Positions 1,573-63,450 of a stretch of DNA of 64,000 nucleotides are shown piece after piece (position 1 is the first letter of the stretch; every line of letters begins with the position of its first letter). Under the pieces are notes generated by a model that saw only the letters and a program-made list of their open reading frames with translations, did no database searches and had not been told where the DNA came from. The DNA is from Pelomonas cellulosilytica (GTDB lineage Bacteria > Pseudomonadota > Gammaproteobacteria > Burkholderiales > Burkholderiaceae_C). The DNA lies in assembly GCF_021353265.1 (NCBI RefSeq), contig NZ_JAJTWU010000005.1, positions 372,001-436,000 of the forward strand, read 5' to 3'. The translations under genes were made by a program, and so were the position numbers.

Positions 1573-1767
1573 ATGTTCAAGACCAATGTCGGCGGCATCG
1601 ACCGAATCGTCCGCATCCTGGCCGGCCTCGTGCTGCTGGGGCTGGCCGTCACCGGCACCATCGGCGTGTGGGGCTACGTCGGCGTAGTGCCGCTGGCCAC
1701 TGGCCTGCTGAGCACCTGCCCGCTGTACTCGGTGCTGGGCTTCAACACCTGCCCGATGAAGGGCTGA
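1573..1767 (+). CDS. Small DUF2892 inner-membrane protein
   Basis: The 64-residue product has two hydrophobic helices, roughly residues 14-30 and 34-50, and ends FNTCPMKG. The opening [18 protein letters not shown] and the closing [14 protein letters not shown] are typical of the DUF2892 (YgaP-like membrane domain) family. The family has no settled biochemical role but is often linked to rhodanese domains and sulfur stress. A clear Shine-Dalgarno AAGGAG lies 7 bases before the ATG. It follows the Crp/Fnr regulator on the same strand and may be controlled by it. Confidence 0.88.
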
Positions 1768-1795
1768 AGCCCTCGCGGAGACCGACAATGCCGCC

Positions 1796-2086
1796 ATGGA
1801 TTGCCGCCCCCGCTGCGCCGCCTGCTGCATCGCGCCGTCGATCAGCTCGCCCATTCCCGGCATGCCCGACGGCAAGCCGGCCGGCGTGCGCTGCGTGCAG
1901 CTGGACGACGACGACTGCTGCCGGCTCTTCGGCCGGCCCGAGCGCCCGGCTGTCTGCGGCTCGCTGCAGCCCAGCGAGTTGATGTGCGGCGACAGCCGCG
2001 AGCAGGCGATGCGCTGGCTCGGCTGGATGGAGCGCGAGACTGCCCCGGTCACGCCGCCTGCACCCGCCTCTCGCGCGGGCGGCTGA
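1796..2086 (+). CDS. YkgJ-family cysteine-cluster protein
   Basis: A 96-residue cytoplasmic protein starts [11 protein letters not shown] and carries further Cys in [20 protein letters not shown] and LMCGD. The spaced Cys pattern matches the YkgJ family, thought to bind zinc or an iron-sulfur cluster; the exact role is unknown. An alternative ATG at 1789 is in another frame, so 1796 is the start. Its 3' end overlaps by 38 bases the 3' end of the convergent DUF2061 gene. Confidence 0.85.
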
Positions 2087-2273
2087 AGCGCTCGCGCCAG
2101 GCCTCGGCGCGCGGGTGGTCCCAGTACTTATCGAAGAAGTAGTGCAGCACCGTGTTGCACAGCGGCTCGACGAAGGTCACCGCGCCCGCCACGGCGACGC
2201 TGCCGGTCAGCGCATAGGTGACGCCAAAGGAGGTGCCCAGATGCAGGATGCCGAAGCTGACGGTCTTGGCCAT
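2049..2273 (-). CDS. DUF2061 membrane protein
   Basis: This 74-residue protein starts [20 protein letters not shown] and contains two hydrophobic segments (about residues 5-25 and 28-45). The [20 protein letters not shown] and HYFFDKYWD stretches are typical of DUF2061, a small integral membrane family of unknown function. An in-frame TTG at 2288 would add five residues, but the ATG matches the family N-terminus better. The gene is convergent with, and overlaps, the YkgJ-type gene. Confidence 0.85.
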
Positions 2274-58032: not shown

Positions 58033-59286
58033 ATGACTGCACTCGACAGTGGCGCCCGGGTGTGGGCGGGCCTCGCCGTCACGCCATCCAGCGAGTTGAT
58101 GTTCGTCGTTGGTGTGCTGCTGGCCGGCGCGCTGGCGGGCGAATTCATTGCCGCGACGACGCGGCTGCCGCGCGTGGTGGGCTACACGCTGGCCGGCTGC
58201 CTGGCCGCCTCCGTCGGACACGGAGTGGCGCTGCCGCTGTCCGGCGCCGCGCAGACGGTGACCGACCTGGCGCTGGGCCTGCTGCTGTTCGAGATTGGCA
58301 GCCGCGTGAACCTGCGCTGGCTGCGGCGCAACCCGGGGCTGCTGGCCACCAGCTTGGCCGAGGCGCTGTTGAGTGCCGTCGCCGTGGCGGCGGTGCTGCG
58401 GCTATTCGATGTGAACTGGGCCGCTGCCGTGGCTTGCGCCATCCTGGCCATGCCGGCACCGGCGGCCGTGTCTGGCCGTGTGTCGCTGGAGCTGGGCGCC
58501 GAGGGCCAGGTCACGCAGCGCGCGCAGCTGCTGACCGCGCTGAACACCTTCTACGCAGTGGTGGCGCTCACGCTGATGCGCACCTGGTGGGCAGCCGACG
58601 ACGGCGGCAGCCTGCCGCAGGCGCTGGCGGGTCTGGCCATCTCGCTGCTGACGACGCTGGGCGTGGCCGCGCTGCTGGCGGGCGGCACCTACCTGGCCGC
58701 GCGGCGGCTGGATCTGCGCAACGAGAGCGCAGCGCTGCTGCTGTTCGGGCTGGTCGCCTTCGCCATCGTCGCGGCGCGCGCCATCGGCGTGTCCACGCTG
58801 CTGATGCCGCTGCTGGCCGGCCTGCTGCTGCGCAACACCAGCGAGCGGCCGTGGGTGTGGCCGCGTCACTTCGGCACGTCGGGCGGCGCGCTGGTGCTGA
58901 TGCTGTTCGTCATCGTCGGTTCGGCCTGGTCGCCCGCGGTGCTGGTGGCCGGCGGCTTCGCCGCGCTGGCGCTGATGGCGGCGCGCTTTATCGCCAAGAC
59001 GCTGGCCATCAACGCGTTCGCGCCCTGGGCCAAGGCCAGCTGGCGCCAGGGCCTGGCGCTGTCCATCACGATGACGCCGCTGTCCGGCACGGCGCTGGTC
59101 ATGCTCAGCGAGCTGATGCGCGGCGAGCCCGAGCTTGCCGCAGGCGCCGTGCCCATCATCCTGGCCAGCATCGCGGTGCTGGAACTCATCGGGCCCATCG
59201 CGGTCCAGTTCGCGCTGCGGTACGCGGGCGAGCTGCCGCCGGCGCCCCGGCGTGTGCGACGCAACAAACAGGAGGCCGGCGAATGA
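58033..59286 (+). CDS. CPA2-type cation:proton antiporter, membrane domain only
   Basis: The 417-residue protein has about twelve transmembrane helices of the Na+/H+ exchanger fold ([49 protein letters not shown]-like [20 protein letters not shown]). It resembles KefB/KefC but lacks the C-terminal NAD-binding RCK/TrkA-N domain, ending soon after the last helix with a basic tail ([12 protein letters not shown]). A Shine-Dalgarno AAGGGAGAG supports the ATG. The ybdK start overlaps its stop by ATGA. K+ efflux for proton entry is a likely but unproven function. Confidence 0.9.
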
Positions 59287-60398
59287 GCCTGGGCATCTTC
59301 TCCACCTCACAGCCGCTGACGCTGGGCGTCGAGCTGGAACTGCAGATCGTCAACAACGATGACTACGACCTCGCGCCCGTCTCCGGCGACCTGCTGCGGC
59401 TGGTGAAGACGCACAGCATCCCCGGCAACATCACGCCGGAGATCACCAGCAGCATGATCGAGCTGTCGACCGGCGTCTGCACGGGCTTTAACCAGGTGCT
59501 GTCGGAGCTGGGCCAGATCCGCGATGCGCTGGTGGACTGCGCCGAGCGGCTGGACGTGAGTCTGTGCGGCGGCGGCACCCACCCCTTCCAGCACTGGAAG
59601 CGCCAGCGCATCTTTGAGACGCCGCGCTTTCACGAGCTGTCGTCGCTGTACGGCTACCTGTCCAAGCAATTCACGATCTTCGGCCAGCACGTGCACATCG
59701 GTTGCCCAAGCGCCGACGAGGCCCTGGTGCTGTTGCACGGCATGAGCCGCTTCATCCCGCACCTGATCGCGCTCGCGGCCTCGTCGCCATTCGTGCAGGG
59801 CGAGGACACGGGCTTCGACTCGGCGCGGCTGAACTCGGTTTTCGCCTTCCCGCTGTCGGGCCGCGCGCCGTTCGTTCAGACCTGGAGCGAGTTCGAGCGC
59901 TACTTCACCAAGATGACGCGCACCGGCGTCGTCGCGGGCATGAAGGACTTCTACTGGGACATCCGGCCCAAGCCCGAGTTCGGCACCATCGAGGTCCGCG
60001 TGCTGGACACGCCGCTGACCATCGAGAAGGCGGCCGCCATCGCCGGCTTCATCCAGTGCCTGGCGCGCTGGATCACCGTCGCGAAGCCGTTCACGCTCAG
60101 CGAGGACGACTACCTGCCTTACACCTTCAACCGCTTCCAGGCCTGCCGCTTCGGGCTGGACGGCACCTTCGTGGACCCGGAGACCGGCGAGCACCGCGTG
60201 CTGCGCGACGACCTGGACCAGGTGCTGAGCCGGCTCGACCCGCACGCCGCTGACCTGCGCGCCGAGGCGGCGCTGCAATACCTGCGGCGGGAGATCCACG
60301 GCGTGGGCAACGACGCGGCGTGGCTGCGGCGCATCGAGGAGGAGAACCACCTGCTGCCCGAGGTCGTCCGGCGGGCGACGCGGCGGTGGCATGGGTAA
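59283..60398 (+). CDS. ybdK: YbdK-family carboxylate-amine ligase (glutamate-cysteine ligase type 2)
   Basis: The 371-residue ATP-dependent ligase has the GCS2 pattern: [19 protein letters not shown] (Glu residues for Mg-ATP), [43 protein letters not shown], and [17 protein letters not shown]. YbdK joins glutamate and cysteine weakly; its true substrate may differ. It is translationally coupled to the antiporter (ATGA), a notable link because Kef-type antiporters respond to glutathione adducts. It ends 62 bases before the convergent fdxA. Confidence 0.93.
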
Positions 60399-60460
60399 GG
60401 GAGGCGGGACACTCGCGCCTGCGCTCGAGGTGGCTTCCAAGTTAGCGCATCAGGTGACGG

Positions 60461-60796
60461 CTACCAATTGAGCTGCAGATGCGCCAGCTTGCCAGGAACG
60501 CCGACCCAAGCTTCATGATCTGCGAGCGGTGACCTTGAGCGAGTGATTTGCTTCCAGCTCGGATCTTTGGCCAGTTGCGCATTGATTTCTACAAACGCGG
60601 CTTGTTCTTCCGGAATCTCGTTGGCATTGACGATGGCACCAACGGGGCACTCAGGAACACAGACCGAGCAATCGATGCATTCGGCTGGATCGATCACCAT
60701 GAAATTCGGACCTTCTACGAAGCATTCCATCGGACAGACGTTCACGCAGTCTGTGTACTTGCACTTGATGCAGGACTCGGTGACGACGAATGGCAT
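60461..60796 (-). CDS. fdxA: Ferredoxin FdxA (7Fe, 3Fe-4S plus 4Fe-4S)
   Basis: A 111-residue ferredoxin with the cluster motifs CIKCKYTDCVNVCP (residues 9-22) and CIDCSVCVPECP (residues 40-51) and the usual MPFVVTESCIKCKYTDCVNV start. It carries electrons in the cytoplasm. A GAGAGGA Shine-Dalgarno precedes the ATG at 60796. The base composition of this gene is visibly less GC-rich than that of ybdK beside it. Whether it is chromosomal or part of the imported stretch is not clear. Confidence 0.96.
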   Translation of the reverse strand: MPFVVTESCIKCKYTDCVNVCPMECFVEGPNFMVIDPAECIDCSVCVPECPVGAIVNANEIPEEQAAFVEINAQLAKDPSWKQITRSRSPLADHEAWVGVPGKLAHLQLNW

Positions 60797-60846
60797 TGAT
60801 TCTTATTCCTCTCGACCTTGGATTCCCTTTGGCGGTTCCCTCAAGC

Positions 60847-60899
60847 GCCTAACGAATTCACCGGCTGACACTGCCACCTGGTGCAATGAGAGGTTGGGC
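60847..60899 (-). mobile_element. attC-like site at the end of the DUF4259 gene
   Basis: Read on the minus strand, a 53-base imperfect palindrome starts with GCCCAAC (60899-60893) and ends with GTTAGGC (60853-60847), fitting the RYYYAAC and GTTRRRY ends of integron attC sites. Inner arms ATTGCACC and GGTGAAT pair except for one unpaired G, as in attC L boxes. The DUF4259 stop codon lies inside it. The spacing between R and L boxes is uneven (5 and 2 bases), so confidence is moderate. Confidence 0.5.
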
Positions 60900-61370
60900 C
60901 GCATGTGATGACAAACGGCGAAGGAGGTCCTCAACCTGCGCGTGCCAGCGCGCGTTCGACTCCTGCCGCTCACCCCAAAGATGCCTTAGCTCTGAATCCT
61001 GACTGGCGACGCTCCTTACGGCCTTAGTGGCCAGCGGAGCTAGCTGCTTAACGTTTGCCGCGATAGCGGCCGCCGGTTGTTGAATCTCGGCGGGAAGGAG
61101 TTGCGTAGAGCTGGTGACGCCGCTTGCGACGACTTCGGCAGCGGCAAGCGCGGCTTGACCGTGGAGACTATCTATCACTCCATCTGCCAACGCTCGTTCC
61201 AATGACGAGCGAACAAACTCCACAGAGGGTGCTCGTGCGAAATCAATGATCCAGTCCAACGCACCATCGTTCTCGAAGCTCCCCGGACCCCAGGCTCCAG
61301 CGTAGGAAGGAGAAGCAGTCAAGATGGAGAGGGCAGCGATGGCGAAGCGTCGGGTAACCATGCGGCTCAA
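60853..61370 (-). mobile_element. Candidate integron gene cassette (DUF4259)
   Basis: The stretch between the G/TT recombination points of the two attC-like sites, about 518 bases, holds one gene and little else: the start codon follows the upstream GTTGAGC after three bases and the stop is within the downstream site. This compactness, gene orientation and lower GC match integron cassettes. No integrase gene is in the window. Confidence 0.5.
60858..61361 (-). CDS. Exported DUF4259-like protein
   Basis: The 167-residue protein has a signal peptide (MVTRRFAIAALSILTASPSY, cleavage near SYA-GAWGPG) and then GAWGPGSFENDGALDWIIDF, the opening motif of DUF4259, followed by an Ala-rich helical part. 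DUF4259 has no established function. I took the ATG at 61361; a TTG nine codons upstream lies inside the attC-like site and is unlikely. The gene is lower in GC than the neighbours and is bracketed by attC-like palindromes. The added signal peptide is unusual for the family as I know it. Confidence 0.8.
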   Translation of the reverse strand: MVTRRFAIAALSILTASPSYAGAWGPGSFENDGALDWIIDFARAPSVEFVRSSLERALADGVIDSLHGQAALAAAEVVASGVTSSTQLLPAEIQQPAAAIAANVKQLAPLATKAVRSVASQDSELRHLWGERQESNARWHAQVEDLLRRLSSHAAQPLIAPGGSVSR

Positions 61371-61496
61371 CGTTCGAGTGAACCCCAACCGCAGAGGCGA
61401 GCCTTGTAAGGCAGGGCGGCGGCGACGGTACTTGCTATGGCGCCGCCGGGCCTTTCAGGGCTTGCCGTAGCGGGTCGGGGCTTGAACGCGTTAGGC
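61365..61496 (-). mobile_element. attC-like site upstream of the DUF4259 gene
   Basis: On the minus strand a 132-base quasi-palindrome runs from GCCTAAC (61496-61490) to GTTGAGC (61371-61365). The arms continue GCGTTCAAGCCCCGACCCGC on one side and, in inverse complement, GTTCGAGTGAACCCCAACCG on the other, so they pair over more than 15 bases with bulges. Ends fit RYYYAAC/GTTRRRY and size fits long attC sites. The DUF4259 ATG follows after three bases. Confidence 0.6.
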
Positions 61497-61536
61497 ATCA
61501 GTGGCTTCGCGCCGGCGCTTGACTCGCCCAACCAGC

Positions 61537-61800
61537 TCACTCTCTGCGATCCTTGCCGCGCCAGCCGCGAGAGTTTGGATCAATGAGGAGTTGCTCCCCT
61601 TCTCGGACTAGGCGTTGCACCATAGCGCTCGCGTTGTGCGCGCCGTGCTGTGGCTCCATGGCTTGAGCGACTTCAGCTGCGTTCTCGGCAACTCCGACCC
61701 CGTTGTTCAGGCGAACTCTCAAGCCTGTGTCGTGCAAGGCGAGGCCTTCCAGTTGATCAATCTGCCAATTGGCTTGCCAAAGTGAGTGTTTCGAGCCCAT
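61537..61800 (-). CDS. Small ORF of unknown function
   Basis: I do not recognise this 87-residue product (start MGSKHSLWQANWQIDQLEGL; end LLIDPNSRGWRGKDRRE). It has no signal peptide or membrane helix and reads as a soluble, mixed-charge protein. Its base composition is like the DUF4259 gene and unlike the flanks. It ends 40 bases before the longer attC-like site, in the position of a cassette gene, but no GTTRRRY core lies upstream of its start, so it could be a truncated or resident gene. Coding status is uncertain. Confidence 0.45.
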   Translation of the reverse strand: MGSKHSLWQANWQIDQLEGLALHDTGLRVRLNNGVGVAENAAEVAQAMEPQHGAHNASAMVQRLVREGEQLLIDPNSRGWRGKDRRE

Positions 61801-61822
61801 GCAGCATGGTACCGGGTGGCCT

Positions 61823-62167
61823 CTAGGCCTTTGGGGCATTGCGCGGCGGCACGCAGCGACTCGCCCGCCACGCCGCGACCAACGCTCGCGCCAACCCCGG
61901 CAACTCCCCCCGGCCCACACGCTTCGCAAAGCCGAAGCGCTCGCCAGCGTAGATCCGGTCATACGCCAGCCGCGAGACATGCGCCGGCCAGCCCTGGGAG
62001 GCCATCAGCGCGGAGAAGCGCTCCAGCTGCTCCAGAGCAACCGGCACCGGGCGCCCGTCGCAGGGGACGGGCTCGTCGAGCACCAGGCGGTCGGCCTCGT
62101 GATCACGGCGGATGCGGCGTGGCCCGAAGCTGGGTAGCGGACTGGGGCGGGAGCGGCGGTGCGGCAT
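61823..62167 (-). CDS. Hypothetical protein
   Basis: The 114-residue product starts MPHRRSRPSPLPSFGPRRIR, basic and proline-rich, then has a helical part (VALEQLERFSALMASQGWPA; YDRIYAGERFGFAKRVGRGE). No known domain is recognised. The composition is that of the high-GC chromosome. The ATG at 62167 was chosen; an upstream start at 62278 gives an unlikely N-terminus. It lies 22 bases from the small ORF that begins the lower-GC stretch, so it marks the edge of that stretch. Confidence 0.6.
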   Translation of the reverse strand: MPHRRSRPSPLPSFGPRRIRRDHEADRLVLDEPVPCDGRPVPVALEQLERFSALMASQGWPAHVSRLAYDRIYAGERFGFAKRVGRGELPGLARALVAAWRASRCVPPRNAPKA

Positions 62168-62280
62168 GGCCTGCAAGATAGTCCGGCACCGGCCACCGCC
62201 GCTGTCGAAAAGCACCGCTTCCGCCGGCCTGCGGCGCAGGCCGGCGCAGTTTCCGGCGCGGGGCGTGGTTTCGGTCACGA

Positions 62281-63369
62281 TCAGGCTAACGCCACTTCCT
62301 GGCGGCTCGCGTCGCTGGCCACGCCGGCGTCCAGCAGCCGCTGCACGGCCAGCGCTTCATGCGCGGAGACCGGTGGCTGGCCGTGTCCGAGCAGCGCGTC
62401 GCGCAGACCGTCGTAGTAGGCCGGGTAGTCACCGCGCGGCAGCGGCTCGGGTTGGACGGGAGCGTCATCGCCAGTGAAAAGCCGTGCATGCCGCGCCTCC
62501 AGACCCCAATCAGCGGCGCAGGGTGCACGGGCGCCGCTCTTCAGGTCGGCCTCCTGGCCGTCCAGCCCCTCGACCTGCCAGCTGCCGGCCGTGCCATACA
62601 GCAAGAAGCGCGGCCGCGGCGCAGCGGCAAGCATGCTGGCGGCGAGCGTCACGCGCAGGCCGTCGTAGGGCCCACCGGCCCAGCGCAGCCGGGCGGTGAA
62701 GCCGTCGTCCACCGGCGCGCCGTCGCGGGCGCGCACGCGGTCCAGCGTCAGCGCGGCGGGCGGGCCGAACAGCTGCACGGTCTGGTCCAGCAGATGCGGG
62801 CCGAGGTCCATCCACAGGCCGGCGCCAGGTTCGTCGCGCTCGCGCCAGCGGTCGCGCACGGCGGGGCGGAAGCGGTCGAAGTGCGACGCCAGCTCGACGG
62901 GCCGGCCCACGCGGCCGTCCGCCAGCAGCCGGCGCAGCGCGAGGAAGTCGCTGTCCCAGCGGCGGTTGTGGAAGACGCTCAGCAGCCGGCCCTGGCGCTC
63001 GGCCAGCGCCACAAGCCCGGCTGCCTCTTGAGCGTCGAGCGCGAACGGCTTGTCGATGACGACGTGGCGGCCGGCCTCCAGCGCCTGCCGCGCCAGCGGA
63101 TGGTGCGTGCGGTTGGGGCTGGCGATGACGACGAGGTCGATGTCGTCGCGGGCGATGAGCGCGTCGGCCGCGCAGACGGCCACGTCGGGCCCCAGCGCCC
63201 GCGCCACCTTGCCGGCGTCGCTGCTGGCGACGGCGGTGAGCGACAGGCCGGGCGTGGCGCGGATCAGCGGCGCGTGGAAGGTGGCGCCGGCATAGCCGAA
63301 GCCGATGAGGCCGGCGCGCAGCGGGGCCGCGGAAGGGTGCAGGTCGGAGCGGCTTGGCGGCGTCGTCAT
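62281..63369 (-). CDS. Gfo/Idh/MocA-family oxidoreductase
   Basis: The 362-residue NAD(P)-dependent enzyme starts with a Rossmann fold (LRAGLIGFGYAGATFHAPLI, with GFGYAG), continues DLVVIASPNRTHHPLARQAL and HVVIDKPFALDAQEA (the EKP-like IDKP catalytic Lys), and has the C-terminal GFO_IDH_MocA_C domain (LWMDLGPHLLDQTVQLFGPP). It oxidises or reduces a sugar or inositol-type substrate; specificity is unknown. It resembles YdgJ/YvaA-type members. It is divergent from the CAAX protease gene. Confidence 0.93.
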   Translation of the reverse strand: MTTPPSRSDLHPSAAPLRAGLIGFGYAGATFHAPLIRATPGLSLTAVASSDAGKVARALGPDVAVCAADALIARDDIDLVVIASPNRTHHPLARQALEAGRHVVIDKPFALDAQEAAGLVALAERQGRLLSVFHNRRWDSDFLALRRLLADGRVGRPVELASHFDRFRPAVRDRWRERDEPGAGLWMDLGPHLLDQTVQLFGPPAALTLDRVRARDGAPVDDGFTARLRWAGGPYDGLRVTLAASMLAAAPRPRFLLYGTAGSWQVEGLDGQEADLKSGARAPCAADWGLEARHARLFTGDDAPVQPEPLPRGDYPAYYDGLRDALLGHGQPPVSAHEALAVQRLLDAGVASDASRQEVALA

Positions 63370-63396
63370 GTCCGCGAGTGTCCCGTGAATCGGCGG

Positions 63397-63450
63397 CCGG
63401 CTGCCGACCCTGCGCCTCGGGGGGAGGGCCCCGCCTTAGGGGGCAGCCGG
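63397..63450. repeat. Inverted repeat between divergent genes
   Basis: CCGGCTGCC (63397-63405) is inverse-complementary to GGCAGCCGG (63442-63450); the 36-base interior holds further GC-rich self-pairing (GGGGGGAGGGCCCCGCC). It lies in the 123-base gap between the oxidoreductase and CAAX protease genes. It could be a REP-like element or an operator. Confidence 0.45.

What the first reader, a model, noticed from the sequence alone, without database searches (positions are those of the whole stretch)
60847..61496. Lone integron-type gene cassette (CALIN-like) carrying a secreted DUF4259 protein
Two quasi-palindromes with RYYYAAC/GTTRRRY ends (61365-61496, 60847-60899) bracket one compact gene on the same strand, the start codon three bases after the upstream core and the stop within the downstream site. 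The DNA is visibly less GC-rich than the flanks. No integrase is visible within the window, so it would be a cluster lacking an integrase or a cassette trapped at a secondary site.
Basis: partly seen in the sequence, partly recalled or inferred. Interest (0 to 1): 0.82.

Follow-up and report, generated by a model that had tools for sequence, protein, structure and literature searches.

The report
Stranded integron gene cassette, secreted protein
A small foreign gene cassette, flanked by the two hairpin recombination sites that integrons use to swap genes, lies alone in a bacterial chromosome far from any integron enzyme; such strays are a known kind, but its apparently exported cargo protein belongs to a family with no known function that turns up in similar cassettes of relatives.

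Summary
60847-60899 and 61365-61496 are both attC sites. A covariance model built from 33 attC sites of integrase-linked arrays finds the first (30.3 bits, E 3.7e-5, best in 64 kb). It misses the second, a long attC of another subfamily: homologues (70-81% identity) coincide with attC sites in arrays of other family genomes, one array beside an integrase, and a model of 22 such sites gives it 81.5 bits. Both have the polarity that the minus-strand gene requires. The cargo is DUF4259 with an apparent signal peptide. No intI match lies on this contig; the genome has two elsewhere. So it is a CALIN: one complete cassette, the attC end of an upstream cassette (87-aa ORF, near-orphan), and perhaps a truncated third (second FdxA, no attC after it). 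Precise excision could not be tested: no relative examined has the flanks. DUF4259 genes lie beside attC sites in three other family genomes, one of the same genus; three of the four carry an N-terminal extension that looks like a signal peptide and ends where relatives start. New member of a known kind; cargo function unknown.

The parts
60847..60899 (+). attC site closing the DUF4259 cassette; recombinogenic (bottom) strand is +, cassette reads on -
   Evidence: R1 30.3 bits E 3.7e-5 on +, 9.6 bits on -; arm profile 30.5; fold z 0.06
60858..61361 (-). DUF4259 gene, 167 aa, apparent signal peptide, putative mature start GAWG
   Evidence: Pfam PF14078 2.8e-25, 90.1 bits; homologues; alignments
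61365..61496 (+). long (132 bp) attC site, 3' end of the upstream cassette; bottom strand is +
   Evidence: R2 81.5 bits E 9.4e-16 on +, 34.8 on -; 70-81% identical stretches at attC sites of arrays; R1 does not find it
61537..61800 (-). 87-aa ORF, probable cargo of the upstream cassette (start of that cassette not identified)
   Evidence: position before attC; GC 59%, GC3 0.62; no homologue at E <= 1e-3 in 298 other family genomes; one weak tblastn hit, 27%, E 9e-4, among the loci held (L102)
60461..60796 (-). second, divergent FdxA ferredoxin gene; possibly a terminal cassette that lost its attC
   Evidence: NF045490 148.7 bits, cut-off 135; GC 54%; other copy at C23:336853; no R1 hit in 30 fdxA loci of relatives

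Best explanation
A CALIN: a short run of integron cassettes left without an integrase. Shown: two attC sites of different subfamilies, same polarity, 466 bp apart, with one compact gene between them laid out as a cassette (start 3 bp after the upstream core, stop inside the downstream site); no intI match on this contig; two intI genes with attC arrays elsewhere in the genome. Inferred: the folded bottom strand (+) of each attC can be cut by an IntI between the G and TT of the core, so the DUF4259 cassette could be excised as a circle and reinserted, in trans, by one of the genome's integrases. Inferred: DUF4259 is exported by its signal peptide and acts in the periplasm or outside; what it does there is unknown. 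With no leader between core and ATG, expression would depend on transcription from ORF3 or beyond. Inferred history: acquisition from an array with long attC sites, like those of several family members, since the R1 sites of this genome's own two arrays run 43-111 bp (13 of 19 are 56-60 bp) and R2 finds no site of about 130 bp there.
For: R1, 60847 site; R2, 61365 site; both sites top of the window; null calibration; 61365 relatives at array sites; the G295 copy is one of 10 same-strand sites in a 10-kb region that begins with intI, intI placed; intI over the cut-off only on C27 and C29; array sites of this genome; DUF4259 genes beside attC in three other genomes; stretch absent behind gcs2 in relatives; GC.
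Against: Both sites score below all 33 training sites. R1 fails on 61365-61496. R2 was trained on sites that a DNA search with this very element had pointed to, so its E-value measures kinship with them and is not an independent test; what is independent is that those sites are R1 hits in arrays. The 60847 hairpin is weak alone. 61365-61496 lacks three bases of a spacer compared with its family and has an imperfect L box, so it may recombine poorly. In 2 of 13 fetched regions the homologous stretch is not an R1 hit. The 5' end of the ORF3 cassette and any attC after FdxA were not found. In the own-genome R1 search the 60847 site does not appear; only 150 of 14978 candidates were scored there.
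Confidence: 0.93

Rival explanations
1. Single-cassette capture at a secondary (attG-type) site near fdxA: an integrase put one or two cassettes straight into the chromosome, rather than this being the remnant of an array.
For: The genome has two intI genes elsewhere, and three more isolated attC-like hits, C5:56331, C27:49089 and C27:136158. CALINs away from intI are described in Xanthomonas, and attG insertion in E. coli (PMC12444791, passages).
Against: An attC on both sides needs at least two cassettes; no GTT/GAT-type junction was recognised by eye before ORF3; the long attC subfamily differs from the sites found in this genome's own arrays.
Confidence: 0.3
2. Dispersed palindromic repeats or terminators (REP-like) that only resemble attC.
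For: 61365-61496 has diverged copies in two same-genus genomes (G004, G010); its hairpin is strong.
Against: In 11 of 13 fetched regions the homologue coincides with an R1 attC hit, and in several it is one of many same-strand sites at cassette spacing (27 in 18 kb of G430). Polarity agrees with the gene at both window sites.
Confidence: 0.03
3. FdxA is a third cassette of the same element that lost its attC in the rearrangement next to gcs2, rather than resident flank.
For: Same strand; GC3 0.62 like DUF4259 (0.59) and ORF3 (0.62), against 0.95 in gcs2; a divergent second copy (66-73% aa to its best matches in relatives).
Against: No attC follows it, and no R1 hit in 30 fdxA loci of relatives; 50-bp leader.
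Confidence: 0.4

Closest known systems
CALIN (cluster of attC sites lacking an integron-integrase; IntegronFinder 2.0, PMC9024848, passages read)
   Same: Two clustered attC sites, no nearby intI, compact same-strand cargo.
SALIN / attG insertions (PMC12690207 and PMC12444791, passages read; Loot 2024 seen only as a reference)
   Same: Cassette outside any integron platform in a genome that has integrases.
   Different: Two attC sites rather than one; no target core identified.
Long (127-132 bp) attC sites in arrays of family genomes G430, G153, G295 (no names held)
   Same: 61365-61496 aligns over nearly its whole length at 70-81%.
   Different: Three bases missing in a spacer; altered L box; a single copy here.
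DUF4259 (PF14078)
   Same: Full domain match, 90 bits.
   Different: N-terminal signal-like extension; 11 of 14 rows compared start with Met directly before G-[AT]-W under my start choice.

Membership tests
attC site (60847-60899) | R''/R' cores, unpaired spacer, L stem with extrahelical base, polarity matching the cassette | tested here: met
   R1 30.3 bits on +, 9.6 on -; arm alignment
attC site (61365-61496) | match to an attC profile, and homologues inside cassette arrays | tested here: met
   R2 81.5 bits; arrays. Not found by R1
CALIN | at least two attC sites close together | tested here: met
   466 bp apart
CALIN | no neighbouring intI | tested here: met
   intI over the cut-off only on C27 and C29; no match at E <= 0.001 on C25
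Integron cassette | single gene between attC cores, same orientation | tested here: met
Integron cassette | clean presence/absence at the core in relatives | tested here: inconclusive
   Absent behind gcs2 in the relatives examined, but none has the immediate flanks
Integron cassette | recombination by IntI | not testable with these tools
   needs an excision/insertion assay
attG secondary-site insertion | attC only at the 3' side and a GWT-type target core at the 5' junction (recalled) | tested here: inconclusive
   attC on both sides of DUF4259; no core recognised by eye upstream of ORF3
DUF4259 (PF14078) | score over the gathering cut-off | tested here: met
   90.1 vs 22.8 bits
FdxA ferredoxin (NF045490) | score over the equivalog cut-off | tested here: met
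   148.7 vs 135 bits

The most novel reading that the evidence does not exclude
There is a cassette-borne, exported branch of DUF4259: three integron cassettes (this one, Polaromonas sp. A23, and another species of this genus) each fuse a signal peptide, with twin arginines that suggest Tat export, exactly upstream of G-A-W, so that cleavage would recreate the N-terminus that cytoplasmic relatives get by losing Met. That would imply that the free N-terminal glycine is functional, and that integrons carry this family as a periplasmic or secreted effector or protective module.
Probability: 0.4. Interest if true: 0.5.

Novelty: new member of a known kind. Interest (0 to 1): 0.35.

Why it matters
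It adds a clean minimal CALIN whose two attC sites come from different subfamilies, in a genome with two integrases, and it shows that a model trained on short attC sites can miss a long, divergent one that its subfamily recognises. The cargo gives a testable lead on DUF4259, a name that a search of the held open-access library found in one paper only (listing).

Tried and rejected
Rfam found nothing in 60000-62500. PADLOC: no match for any of the three small proteins; PHROGs: only FdxA matched. phmmer of DUF4259 against PDB sequences gave no match below E 0.1. The AlphaFold2 model of DUF4259 (mean pLDDT 77, all helical) gave no Foldseek match at E <= 0.001; the VIA-align rows are designed or seemingly unrelated helical proteins with Z 6.5 or less, taken as uninformative. 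DUF4259 in viral contigs: 36 stretches matched a pattern, no confirmed relative. In plasmids: one distant protein hit; DNA of the stretch matched 49 plasmid records, the 20 listed all within the fdxA part. A half attC after FdxA was considered by eye and rejected on core and spacing. Searches were literature listings; nothing rests on them beyond the papers named.

Training choices: 33 R1 sites. One search gave 33 non-redundant candidates; I dropped two that looked wrong (L012:3683-3756, L164:7360-7421) and added two from L012 by hand; three of the 33 come from the window's own genome. The pre-scan (its output was cut in view) matched both strands almost equally (123 and 121), so training polarity came from intI direction, not from the scan. 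R2: 22 sites chosen by hand, in regions fetched because they resemble the window element, 12 of them from one array (effective number of sequences 1.8), so its E-value is rough and not independent of that choice; sites outside its training also score (L173 70.9, L171 64.4 bits). In one search the ORF3 translation was out of frame, so its negative there is void; ORF3 was searched properly. In one search start codons were assigned by me (for L218, L219, L220 and L225 by a pattern that requires [MVL] before G[AT]W); L223 was not caught by the pattern and L213 (near copy of L214) was left out.

Full report
What is there. The window is C25:372001-436000 of a 6.35-Mb, 29-contig genome. Between a YbdK/GCS2 gene (59283-60398, +) and a Gfo/Idh/MocA oxidoreductase (62281-63369, -) lies a stretch of lower GC (60461-61800) with three small minus-strand genes: an 87-aa ORF, a DUF4259 gene and a second FdxA. 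GC3 is 0.59-0.62 in these three, against 0.95 and 0.90 in the two flanking genes.

Are the palindromes attC? I located intI genes in the family (128 of 300 genomes at E <= 1e-90), asked for the cassette side of 20 of them (some contigs ended early) plus arrays of the window's genus, and built model R1 from 33 sites modelled on the bottom strand. In those sites the named structure covaries: 92.5% of cells paired, 12 of 17 pairs with a change on both sides, slid versions at most 44% paired. R1 over the window: 60847-60899 on + with 30.3 bits; the next place has 14.0; the opposite strand 9.6. On the array strand, the two arrays of this genome give 28.8-66.4 bits, and one further L012 match 17.0, so 30.3 is low but within range.

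R1 gave only fragments of a few bits within 61365-61496. A profile of the two arms only, devised after that and ignoring the middle, put exactly this element second in the window (29.0), after 60847-60899 (30.5), on the same strand. Nulls: 0 of 2 Mb simulated at window composition, 0 of 2 Mb at local composition (both one strand) and 0 of 377 kb of relatives' flanks (both strands) reach 29.0. The DNA search that settled it: 52 of 399 family genomes, the own one included, match the element at E <= 0.01, many by short stretches. I fetched 13 regions from 11 of them, chosen from the top of the list. In 11 of 13 regions the homologous stretch coincides with an R1 attC hit; in the two others (G092, G159) it does not, though R1 sites lie within 0.2 and 0.75 kb. 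G430 has 27 R1 sites on one strand within 18 kb, spaced 401-1640 bases, including the 81% copy. In G295 the copy is one of ten same-strand sites in a 10-kb region that begins with intI; its contig C6, also fetched, carries sites of the same scores and may be the same array assembled twice. A model from 22 such sites (R2) gives 61365-61496 81.5 bits, E 9.4e-16 on +, and 34.8 on -; the next place in the window has 16.1. R2 is trained on kin of the element, so this states kinship, not an independent test. Compared with the family it lacks three spacer bases and has a changed L box.

Homologues in the same genus: G004 C36 has an R2 hit of 98.1 bits near a contig end, with the outer core on one side not standard by eye; G010 C38 has a degenerate copy (R2 22.6 bits) after a PIN-domain-like gene (by eye).

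Integrase. intI genes over the cut-off are at C27:114110 and C29:338765; lower-scoring matches on C12 and C24; none on C25. Further isolated attC-like hits: C5:56331, C27:49089, C27:136158 (in which only 150 of 14978 candidates were scored).

Locus history. GCS2 at 87% identity or more is present in 16 of 19 same-genus genomes. Behind it, blastn finds nothing of 60.42-63.43 kb in 16 same-genus loci (3.7-6.3 kb) or in 14 same-genus and 6 other family loci (6.6-19.8 kb). In three (G009, G001, G015) the next conserved gene (63435 on; CPBP-like by my reading) is found 4.7-9.3 kb behind gcs2, with other DNA between. R1 finds nothing above 14.3 bits in those 20 loci. So the interval is variable, but the exact empty site cannot be shown.

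Neighbours. ORF3 has no homologue at E <= 1e-3 in 298 other family genomes; among the loci held, one weak hit, 27% over 84 residues, E 9e-4, in L102 (G034). FdxA passes its equivalog cut-off and has no R1 hit after it nor in 30 fdxA loci of relatives.

Cargo. DUF4259 is rare in the family: 8 of 339 genomes, own included. With R1 on these eight loci, three lie beside attC (own, G211, G218) and five do not. G211 looks like the same locus as Polaromonas sp. A23 (L209: same protein and same site scores). A fourth case, G010 of the same genus, was met by chance through the attC search and is not among the eight; whether G010 was in that sample is not shown. Its gene, 1631-2092 (-) of L227, is followed by an attC (R1 22.2 bits, 1572-1629). 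Three of the four (own, Polaromonas/G211, G010) have an N-terminal extension with RR near the start and a hydrophobic stretch, ending at A|G-A-W; the 11 other rows of my 14-row tree start M-G-[AT]-W under my start choice. The three extended ones group with support 92/96 (below the starred level and drawn as an open fork). Tat and signal-peptide readings are recalled motifs, not predictions by a tool.

Literature. CALIN and SALIN definitions from passages of PMC9024848 and PMC12690207; CALINs away from intI in Xanthomonas from passages of PMC12444791. The word-start search for DUF4259 returned one paper, seen only in the listing, on a lanthipeptide.

Verdict. It is a member of a known kind (CALIN), with an uncharacterised, apparently exported cargo.

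Noticed in passing
L227:1572-2092 (G010:C38) and L209:2501-3043 (Polaromonas sp. A23): Other DUF4259 genes with a signal-like extension, each followed by an attC site.
   Followed up: partly
L260 (G430:C22:1-18000): Large array of 127-132 bp attC sites, 27 R1 hits in 18 kb, all on one strand.
   Followed up: partly
G000:C5:56331, C27:49089, C27:136158: Isolated attC-like hits (27.6-38.2 bits) away from the array sites next to the two intI genes.
   Followed up: no
window 60399-63434: The interval behind the YbdK/GCS2 gene is a variable spot in this genus, with DNA of different kind and length in the relatives compared.
   Followed up: partly
window 60461-60796: Second, divergent FdxA copy; the other copy is on C23.
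   Followed up: partly
contig ends of G011 C3, G010 C10, G009 C29 (L113-L115): Contigs end within 0.7 kb of intI on the array side, so arrays of this genus are probably under-assembled.
   Followed up: no
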